The notes below the pieces were generated by a model. It worked only from the letters and a program-made list of their open reading frames with translations. It had not been told where the DNA came from and made no database searches. Of a DNA stretch of 37,216 nt, positions 5,150-7,579 are shown in pieces. This stretch comes from an uncultured Lachnospiraceae bacterium (lineage in GTDB: Bacteria; Bacillota; Clostridia; Lachnospirales; Lachnospiraceae): positions 1-37,216 of the forward strand of contig CANQRW010000031.1 of assembly GCA_947626365.1 (NCBI GenBank). Reading direction: 5' to 3'. Numbering within the stretch: position 1 is the first letter of the stretch; the number at the start of each line of letters is the position of its first letter. The translations under genes were made by a program, and so were the position numbers.

Positions 5150-5180
5150 CTGCCTGGTTTATGCCAGGCAGCATTTTTTT
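5150..5180 (+). terminator. intrinsic terminator after the HMA gene
   Basis: An 8-bp perfect stem CTGCCTGG/CCAGGCAG (5150-5157 with 5164-5171), a 6-base loop and a run of seven T. Confidence 0.92.
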
Positions 5181-5320: not shown

Positions 5321-5350
5321 TTGACAAAAGATATAACATGGTAGTATTAT
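5321..5350 (+). promoter_or_regulatory. promoter of the binding-lipoprotein gene
   Basis: TTGACA (5321-5326), 18 bases, TATTAT (5345-5350). This gives an untranslated leader of about 160 bases before the start codon at 5516. Confidence 0.65.
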
Positions 5351-5515
5351 AAAAATGCTTAATATTATTGCATTTGCAATAGACGAAATGGTTAAAAATG
5401 TTGAAATAATAGTAAATTTAGCGCGGGAAATGCCAGATAATATTTTGCTATGTTTAACAACAAAACCTTCGTCAGCCACAGTTAACTATTTTACAATTAA
5501 GGAGGCATGCGTCAG

Positions 5516-6920
5516 ATGAAAAAGAAGTTAGCGACTCTGTTAACAATGGCAATGACCGTAGGTCTGTTGGCAGGATGTGGGGGGGGGTAAAACCCAGACT
5601 ACACAAGTTGTAGCGGATTCCTCAGACAGTGAGGGAACGCAGCAGACTACGCAGGCGGCAGCGGATCCCGCAGACAAAGAGGAGACGGCGGACACCAAGG
5701 CAATGGAAGCAGACGCTTCCATGTATGAAGTGACGGAGCCTATCACCATCCAGTGGTGGCATTCCGTAGAGGACCAGCATAGCTGGGTCGTGGAAGAGGT
5801 TGTGAATGATTTTAACAATTCACAGGATTTGATTACAGTTGAACCGGTTTATGTCGGCTCTTATATCGAGGCCAATGAGGCGCTGGTCACGGCTCAGGCG
5901 GCAGGTCAGGGGCTCCCGGCGGTGTGTGTTGCTCAGACTTCTTATTTGGCCGGATACGGCGCTGGAGGACTGCCTGAGGATCTGGGTCCGTATGCAGCCG
6001 CTACCGGTTATGATTTAGATGATTTTTCGACCGGTATGCTTTTGGCCTCTCAGTATGAAGGTAAGCAGGTATCTCTTCCGTTTCTGATTTCCACACAGGC
6101 GATCTATTATAATAAGGACATTGCCGAAGCGGAAGGTATTGAGATTCCTGAGGATTGGAGCGGCATGGACGAGTTTCTGGAGAAGGCCGCTGCTAATGGC
6201 CGTACCGGTTTGAGTATTCCCGGGTGGGGAGAGTGGTATTTTGAGACATTCTTCCTGAATAATGGACTGAAGATTATTAATGATGACCAGGTTTCTACCG
6301 ATCTGGGCAGCGAAACAGGACTGAAGCTTGCTCACCAGTTCAAGGACTGGCATGACAAGGGCTGGGTTTACTGGTGCAATAATGGAAGCGATGCTTCTTC
6401 CAATATGAGGCAGAGTTTTATTGACGGGAGATCTTTCGCGGTTTGCCATACCAGCGCTATGTATACAACGTATGTGGATTCCTGCGATTTTGAAGTCGGT
6501 ATGGCATGGCTGCCAGGCAGCGACGGCCGTAAAAATCAGGAACTTGGCGGATGCTTTCTGCTGATTCCGGCCAAGAATGATCAGGCTACCAAGAATGCGG
6601 CCTGGCAGTTTTTGGCCTATCTGTGCGGCAAAGAGACAAACATGAAATGGGTAAATGCAACCGGTTATCTGCCTACCAGAAATTCTGTGCTGACCACTGA
6701 GGAAGGCGAGGCATACCTCGCGGAGAAGCCGGCATTTCAGTGTATCTTTGACAATCTTAACCTGATTTATCCGGTAATCCAGCATTCCGGTTGGAACCAG
6801 TTAGCCACCGTTTGGAGAAACTGCATGATTGAGATCATGTATGAGGATGTAGATGTGGATGAGAAGATTGCGGCCATGGCTGAGGAAATCAATGAAGTCC
6901 TTGAGGATGCTGCAGAGTAA
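5516..6920 (+). pseudogene. ABC transporter sugar-binding lipoprotein, frame split at a nine-G run
   Basis: ATG 5516, behind AAGGAGG (5498), starts a lipoprotein signal peptide (MKKKLATLLTMAMTVGLLAG with the lipobox Cys next). It hits TAA at 5588 right after nine consecutive G (5579-5587). The remaining 444 codons continue in another frame from there to 6920; eight G would join them seamlessly. The mature part has a Thr/Gln/Ala-rich linker and then a full family-1 solute-binding fold: IQWWHS near its start, AIYYNKD, EDWSGMDEFL, GRSFAV and the ATKNAAWQFLAYLCG motif of UgpB/MalE-like proteins. No permease or ATPase gene adjoins it. The split could be a sequencing error, a real null mutation or slipped-strand phase variation. 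Confidence 0.85.
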
Positions 6921-6943: not shown

Positions 6944-7579
6944 ATGAAAACAATTCTATGTTTTGGAGATTCCAATACTAACGGCAGCAATCCGAATGGG
7001 GTTCCCATCCGTCATCCCTATAACGTGCGGTGGACTGGCCGGATTCAAACGCTGCTGGGAGAAGATTATTATGTAATTGAGGAAGGCCTGGGCGGCCGGA
7101 CTACAGTCTGGGATGACCCGTTGGAGCCATATCGCTGCGGCAAGGATTTTCTGCCGGCGGCACTGCGTACTCACCGTCCCTTGGATTTGGTAATCCTGTC
7201 GTTGGGAGGCAATGACTGTAAAAGCATTTTCAATGCCAATGCCAGGACAATTACCCGAGGCATGGGAGTTCTGGTAAATATTGTGAAGAAGTTTGATTAT
7301 GGTCCGGACAGTTGTGTTCCGCAGATTCTTTTGATTTCACCGATTCACATGGGACCGAATATTGCCAACAGTATTTTTGAGACCTTTAATGAAGAATCCG
7401 CTGAGAAAGTGAAGCAGCTGGCATCTCTTTATGAGGATTTGGCGGCTCGAACCGGCTGCGGTTTCCTGGATGCGGCAAAAGTGGCTGGCCCAGGTTCCGA
7501 CCAGCTTCATATGGACGGTGAGAATCACCGGGCCCTGGCGGAGGCCCTGGTTCCGGTGATCAAGGGGATGCTGGGATAG
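6944..7579 (+). CDS. SGNH/GDSL hydrolase (esterase)
   Basis: A 211-residue cytoplasmic SGNH-fold esterase with all blocks visible: GDSN with nucleophile Ser10, Gly in GLGGRT (block II), GGND at 88-91 (block III) and DQLH with catalytic Asp186 and His189 (block V). The pattern FGDSNTNG...R..WTGR and the length fit the arylesterase/acyl-CoA thioesterase-like group found in Firmicutes, which often deacetylates sugars. GGAGG at 6931 places the start at 6944. It follows the binding lipoprotein by 23 bases and is probably cotranscribed, so deacylation of an imported saccharide is a reasonable guess. Confidence 0.9.
   Translation: MKTILCFGDSNTNGSNPNGVPIRHPYNVRWTGRIQTLLGEDYYVIEEGLGGRTTVWDDPLEPYRCGKDFLPAALRTHRPLDLVILSLGGNDCKSIFNANARTITRGMGVLVNIVKKFDYGPDSCVPQILLISPIHMGPNIANSIFETFNEESAEKVKQLASLYEDLAARTGCGFLDAAKVAGPGSDQLHMDGENHRALAEALVPVIKGMLG

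What the first reader, a model, noticed from the sequence alone, without database searches (positions are those of the whole stretch)
5516..5640. Nine-G run separates the signal peptide from the mature binding lipoprotein
Seen: ATG 5516 with a strong ribosome site encodes a perfect lipoprotein signal and stops at TAA 5588, just after G5579-G5587. The intact solute-binding domain continues in the frame that would follow if one G were removed (or two added). The run lies right after the lipobox Cys, where Gly codons are common, so it is a natural slippage site. It could act as an ON/OFF switch of a surface receptor (slipped-strand phase variation), or use transcriptional slippage. A sequencing or assembly homopolymer error is the main alternative.
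Basis: partly seen in the sequence, partly recalled or inferred. Interest (0 to 1): 0.72.

Follow-up and report, generated by a model that had tools for sequence, protein, structure and literature searches.

The report
G-run switch on a nutrient receptor
In a gut bacterium a run of nine G's splits the gene of a nutrient-catching surface protein right behind its membrane anchor, and similar G-runs break other surface and regulatory genes in this bacterium and its relatives, so it is probably a random genetic on/off switch, though sequencing reads would be needed to prove it.

Summary
In detail: ATG 5516 opens a 24-codon lipoprotein signal that stops at TAA 5588, directly after G9 (5579-5587); an intact solute-binding domain runs to 6920 in another frame. 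It is the only G/C run of nine or more in the 3.50-Mb genome. The number of long tracts is what chance gives; what is unusual is the frame. Of 86 G/C runs of eight or more from seven genomes of the genus, 21 could be decided by a strict test and 12 of these are out of frame, against 4 of 59 A/T runs of seven or more and 18 of 581 G/C runs of five or six. Out-of-frame tracts lie in binding proteins, BTAD regulators and glycan or surface genes; in-frame ones in addB, recU, PTS and others. In 397 family genomes, six lipoproteins carry G8-9 directly after the anchor cysteine: three out of frame, three in frame. A slipped-strand ON/OFF switch, OFF in this assembly, is the best reading. Length variation within the population could not be tested, so an assembly error or a one-off mutation at this locus remains possible.

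The parts
5150..5180 (+). terminator-like hairpin and T-run after the upstream MATE gene
   Evidence: consensus scan, (3 terminator-like sites found, 2.4 expected)
5321..5350 (+). promoter-like site TTGACA-18-TATTAT, 11 of 12
   Evidence: consensus scan, (6 sites found, 4.1 expected); the intact C2 copy has TTGACA upstream too (by eye)
5500..5505 (+). ribosome-binding site AGGAGG, 10 nt before ATG 5516
5516..5590 (+). short ORF: lipoprotein signal with lipobox LAGC and three Gly codons, then TAA
5579..5587 (+). G9 tract directly after the lipobox Cys codon
5589..6920 (+). mature solute-binding domain, UgpB-like, in the other frame
   Evidence: PF13416 2e-40; best solved relative 9lff_A 3.2e-24; NCBIfam UgpB 71 bits, under its cut-off of 411
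6944..7579 (+). next gene, GDSL-type esterase
   Evidence: PF13472 4e-16, start ATG 6944

Best explanation
A poly-G contingency locus. Replication slippage changes the tract length; in some lengths the signal peptide and the mature solute-binding domain form one lipoprotein that is exported and anchored through the cysteine (ON), in others translation stops within a few codons of the cysteine and only a lipidated stub can be made (OFF). The assembled genome shows an OFF length. Shown here: anatomy, open and constrained binding domain, excess of frame breaks at G/C runs of eight or more, recurrence of the layout with both states. Inferred: length variation inside a population, reversibility, effect on uptake.
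For: Single lesion at the tract and 389 stop-free codons beyond it, dN/dS 0.06 against the intact paralog. Frame breaks: 12 of 21 decided G/C runs of 8 or more, against 4 of 59 A/T runs of 7 or more and 18 of 581 G/C runs of 5-6, Fisher 5e-6 and 5e-12; without three calls that lack Pfam support 9 of 18, Fisher 1e-4 and 7e-9. Three binding lipoproteins of this one genome are broken at G7-G9: the window's, L003 and L026. Lipobox tracts in both states in four genomes, one of them (G038) heading an operon with a permease and a GH38 mannosidase. Homologous BTAD regulators L034 (G7) and L157 (G9) broken at the same place in two species. Out-of-frame and in-frame tracts lie in different gene classes.
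Against: No reads, no second strain. Tract numbers are not above expectation in G000 (1 of 9 or more, 2.2 expected) or G001 (6, 14.6 expected); only G005 is higher (20, 11.3 expected, P 0.012). MutS is present, which would slow slippage. Only 21 of 86 tracts were decided by the strict test, the window's not among them; the classifier errs (L085 is called shifted but reads in frame). The 12 related copies of this protein read in the genus show no G/C run over 6, so the tract at this gene is not conserved. The window copy evolves faster at replaced sites than the C2 copy (dN to G005 0.222 against 0.151).
Confidence: 0.6

Rival explanations
1. Assembly or sequencing error: the tract length in the real cells is another one and the gene is always intact.
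For: One locus, one assembly of 144 contigs; poly-G artefacts occur in the collection (L245 and L247, G runs beside N or oddly long); PMC9187656 reports Illumina trouble behind G-tracts (passages).
Against: A/T runs of 7 or more are rarely out of frame in the same genomes (4 of 59), and in-frame versus out-of-frame tracts sort by gene class, which an error would not know. The same layout is out of frame in G038 and G141.
Confidence: 0.2
2. Plain frameshift mutation: a hypermutable tract in a dispensable extra copy has slipped once, and the gene is a young pseudogene without a selected switch.
For: Extra copy found in 1 of 26 genomes of the genus, an intact paralog at C2, no permease among the window ORFs scanned, faster replaced-site change.
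Against: Otherwise intact reading frame and low dN/dS; recurrence of the layout with both states.
Confidence: 0.14
3. The full protein is made from the nine-G gene by RNA polymerase slippage or by ribosomal frameshifting at the Gly codons before the stop codon.
For: A homopolymer followed at once by a stop codon is a plausible slip site (established knowledge, recalled).
Against: No conserved tract in related copies, as a programmed event would have; tract length varies between paralogs in G141. Not tested directly.
Confidence: 0.06

Closest known systems
Bifidobacterium breve UCC2003 sortase pili bbr_0113 and bbr_1889 (PMC9187656, passages read)
   Same: Secretion signal and mature protein encoded by two ORFs split by a G-tract; replication slippage gives mixed tract lengths; gut commensal.
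   Different: Pilin with LPXTG anchor, longer tract (G11/G12 reported), length variation measured; here a lipoprotein receptor, nine G, not measured.
Mycoplasma fermentans P78 (seen only as described in PMC2831843 and PMC3711429 passages; the original paper is not held)
   Same: Phase-variable surface lipoprotein of an ABC transporter operon, frameshift in a 7-base homopolymer at the 5' end.
   Different: Poly-A, mycoplasma; shown by experiment.
Poly-G/poly-C contingency loci of Campylobacter, Helicobacter, Neisseria (PhasomeIt and others, search listings only)
   Same: G/C tracts in surface, glycan and regulatory genes that are out of frame in part of the genomes.
   Different: Here a Lachnospiraceae genus, tract numbers not above expectation, MutS present.

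Membership tests
Simple-sequence-repeat contingency locus (phase-variable gene) | Homopolymer or short repeat whose length decides frame or promoter spacing | tested here: met
   G9 between the two halves of one protein
Simple-sequence-repeat contingency locus (phase-variable gene) | More than one tract length at the locus within a population or species | not testable with these tools
   one genome per species, no reads; between paralogs of G141 lengths 8, 9, 8
Simple-sequence-repeat contingency locus (phase-variable gene) | Reversible change of expression | not testable with these tools
   needs culture and deep sequencing
Simple-sequence-repeat contingency locus (phase-variable gene) | Over-representation of long tracts in the genome | tested here: not met
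   1 run of 9 or more against 2.2 expected; often seen in such genomes but not required of each locus
ABC transporter solute-binding lipoprotein | Signal with lipobox and SBP_bac domain | tested here: met
   lipobox LAGC by reading, PF13416; in two frames as assembled
ABC transporter solute-binding lipoprotein | Permease genes beside it | tested here: not met
   none among the 18 window reading frames scanned, which reach to 22.3 kb; ORFs beyond were not scanned. The paralog at C2 is followed by permease-like ORFs (by eye)
UgpB (glycerol-3-phosphate binding protein) | NCBIfam equivalog score over its cut-off | tested here: not met
   71.2 bits, cut-off 411

The most novel reading that the evidence does not exclude
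This Lachnospiraceae genus has a poly-G phasome that switches nutrient-capturing lipoproteins, BTAD regulators, glycan-modifying enzymes and, through promoter spacers, secreted surface proteins: bet-hedging on which nutrients and surfaces a gut commensal shows. In the lipobox type the OFF state would not be silent but would leave a short lipidated stub, since in the three out-of-frame lipobox cases the stop follows within a few codons of the cysteine.
Probability: 0.4. Interest if true: 0.75.

Novelty: new member of a known kind. Interest (0 to 1): 0.58.

Why it matters
If true, a commensal of the large gut family Lachnospiraceae would randomly switch its nutrient receptors and regulators by the mechanism known best from mucosal pathogens. 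Assembled genomes and metagenome bins would then report such genes as broken when they are only OFF, and strain-level diet or colonisation differences could come from tract lengths that standard variant calling skips. My searches for such loci in Lachnospiraceae gave 1, 547 (mostly microbiome surveys by title) and 0 papers; I read none of these, and most subscription journals are not held.

Tried and rejected
Counting tracts: tried as evidence for selection, rejected, because numbers fit a geometric expectation in G000 and fall under it in G001. A permissive frame test gave 36 shifted of 58 decided G/C runs of 8 or more, but also 32 of 162 A/T runs of 7 or more and 71 of 739 G/C runs of 5-6, so it is too noisy alone and put L003 on the wrong strand; the strict test is used instead. 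Among its 12 shifted calls, L151, L185 and L187 gave no Pfam match in the one piece of each that I tested and may be gene boundaries. Lipobox pattern: 25 hits against 12 for the reversed control (binomial P 0.047); only 6 of the 25 read as lipoproteins, the others are chance, other proteins or artefacts. Conservation of the tract at this gene: not found; 15 related copies were displayed (ten from nine-plus other genomes of the genus, the C2 paralog, four named records, some of these evidently the same genomes), while 15 of the 19 named records were not read there because the search motif was missing. Sigma-70 and terminator scans are little above shuffles. Structure prediction was not used.

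Not followed: of 94 distinct G/C runs of eight or more listed for G001-G008, 79 were fetched (G002, G004 and 6 of 11 of G006 left out); the list was cut inside G008, so G009-G025 were counted but not read.

Full report
ATG 5516, behind AGGAGG 5500-5505, opens 24 codons that read MKKKLATLLTMAMTVGLLAGCGGG and stop at TAA 5588; G9 fills 5579-5587, directly after the cysteine codon. The frame that continues beyond is open from 5577 to 6920 and is a solute-binding protein, PF13416 at 2e-40. Its best solved relative is a glycerol-3-phosphate binding protein (9lff_A, 3.2e-24), but it is far under the NCBIfam cut-off for UgpB (71.2 against 411 bits), so the substrate is open.

The gene body looks constrained. 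Over 389 codons it has no stop and differs from the intact paralog at contig C2 with dS 1.55, dN 0.094, ratio 0.06. It does change faster at replaced sites than the C2 copy (dN to G005 0.222 against 0.151). The C2 copy has an intact signal without a G run, as have the ten copies from other genomes of the genus and four named records displayed, where no G/C run exceeds 6; 15 of the 19 named records were not examined at this point. Only G000 among 26 genomes of the genus has two copies at E 1e-60. No permease was met among the 18 window reading frames scanned, which end at 22.3 kb.

Is the tract more than chance? By number, no. The 3.50-Mb genome has 54 distinct G/C runs of 7 or more (47, 6 and 1 of lengths 7, 8, 9), and a geometric expectation from 380 kb of its own sequence gives about 50, 9.5 and 1.8. 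G001 has fewer runs of 9 or more than expected (6 against 14.6) and G005 more (20 against 11.3, P 0.012).

By frame, yes. Reading the seven own runs of 8 or 9 with Pfam on the pieces, five lie at a frame break: the window gene, a second solute-binding lipoprotein (L003), a secreted choline-binding/transglutaminase protein (L005) and two acyltransferases (L008, under the Pfam cut-off, and L009); two are unclear (L004, L010). Among the 47 runs of exactly 7, L026 (a third solute-binding lipoprotein) and three BTAD regulators (L030, L034, L074) are broken too, and L046 reads like a fourth BTAD protein (by eye). Runs of 7 beside a lipobox that are in frame exist as well (L029, L041, L085).

I extended this to 79 runs of 8 or more from six other genomes of the genus; these are 79 of the 94 listed for G001-G008, the list being cut. 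With a strict coding test, 12 of 21 decided runs are shifted and 65 of 86 undecided, the window's among them; controls from samples of G000, G001 and G005 give 4 of 59 for A/T runs of 7 or more and 18 of 581 for G/C runs of 5-6 (Fisher 5e-6 and 5e-12). Leaving out three shifted calls without Pfam support gives 9 of 18 (1e-4 and 7e-9). In the own genome alone, runs of exactly 7 gave 5 shifted, 12 same, 30 undecided; one of the five, L085, is a misjudgement by eye.

Gene class separates the two states. Shifted: BTAD regulators (L143, L157), a PL8 lyase (L150), a CBM_X2 protein (L154), a flagellin with an inserted domain (L156; insert by eye), a rhamnosidase (L159), a GtrA-type glycosyltransferase (L181), a MATE protein (L200), the solute-binding protein L003. 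In frame: MBOAT, AddB, AraC, PTS EIIC, a histidine kinase, M16C peptidase, RecU, a proton antiporter subunit, and one without Pfam match. Base-calling or assembly errors would not sort genes in this way, and they would hit A/T runs too. BTAD proteins L034 (G000, seven G) and L157 (G003, nine G) are homologous on both sides (64 of 127 and 169 of 278 identical residues) and are broken at the same place.

The layout itself recurs. The pattern Ala/Gly-Cys-G8 has 25 hits in 20 of 397 family genomes against 12 hits of the reversed pattern (binomial P 0.047). Reading all 25, six are lipoproteins with the tract right behind the anchor cysteine: out of frame in the window, in G038 and in one of three G141 paralogs; in frame in the other two G141 paralogs and in G319. 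Two of the G141 paralogs are neighbours and the third lies about 9 kb away, with tracts of 9, 8 and 8. In G038 the broken gene is a solute-binding protein followed by a permease and a GH38 mannosidase. In the three out-of-frame cases the stop comes within a few codons of the cysteine.

A second class was met on the way: G runs between promoter-like hexamers. 13 of 133 runs are followed within 5 nt by a -10-like hexamer against 70 of 4024 runs of 4-6 G (Fisher 1.6e-6); some of the 13 lie inside genes, but L037, L049, L089, L148 and L201 precede reading frames with signal-like starts (by eye).

Mechanism. Most likely slipped-strand mispairing at the tract toggles the lipoprotein: ON lengths give an exported, lipid-anchored receptor, OFF lengths a lipidated stub. 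Shown: anatomy, constraint, excess of frame breaks, recurrence in both states. Inferred: variation within cells of one population, reversibility, the effect on uptake. MutS is present, so rates may be lower than in Campylobacter (recalled: it lacks MutS). An assembly error or a single fixed slip at this locus stays possible; one genome per species is held, and no reads.

Known relatives. The B. breve pili (PMC9187656, passages) show signal and mature part split by a G-tract with measured length mixtures; M. fermentans P78 (described in PMC2831843 and PMC3711429, passages) is a phase-variable lipoprotein of an ABC transporter with a poly-A tract. PMC2831843 (passages) finds poly-A and poly-T, not poly-G, generally over-represented in genes. 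So the kind is known; the taxon and the position behind the lipobox are what is new, as far as ten searches of an open-licence library show.

Noticed in passing
G000 contigs C3, C6, C41 (L030, L034, L074; neighbourhoods L269, L268, L270): Three BTAD regulators, two with weak GGDEF similarity, are broken at G7 tracts; L030 and L074 lie 1-2 kb from reading frames of 2304 and 2468 aa with signal-like starts. L046 looks like a fourth (by eye).
   Followed up: partly
L037, L049, L089 (G000), L148 (G001), L201 (G007): G7-G9 between -35-like and -10-like hexamers in front of reading frames with signal-like starts: a possible promoter-spacer switch.
   Followed up: partly
L267 (G000 C2:40001-60000): Three solute-binding protein genes within about 12 kb, the outer two broken at G8 and G7 and the middle one intact, beside a GDPD gene.
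   Followed up: partly
L265 (G141 C1:343001-363000): Three lipoprotein paralogs with nearly the same signal and G8, G9, G8 behind the cysteine; two give no Pfam match, the third a weak DUF4923 match.
   Followed up: partly
L181 and L182 (G005 C8): Two glycosyltransferase-like genes with G10 and G9 at a similar place, both out of frame by eye.
   Followed up: no
L156 (G003 C31): Flagellin-like gene with an inserted peptidase-like stretch, out of frame at G10.
   Followed up: no
L245, L247: Very long or N-flanked poly-G in assemblies, a reminder that poly-G artefacts exist in the collection.
   Followed up: no
window 5589-6917 against L022: The window copy has lower third-position GC (0.535) than the C2 copy (0.689), which may point to transfer from a relative.
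   Followed up: no
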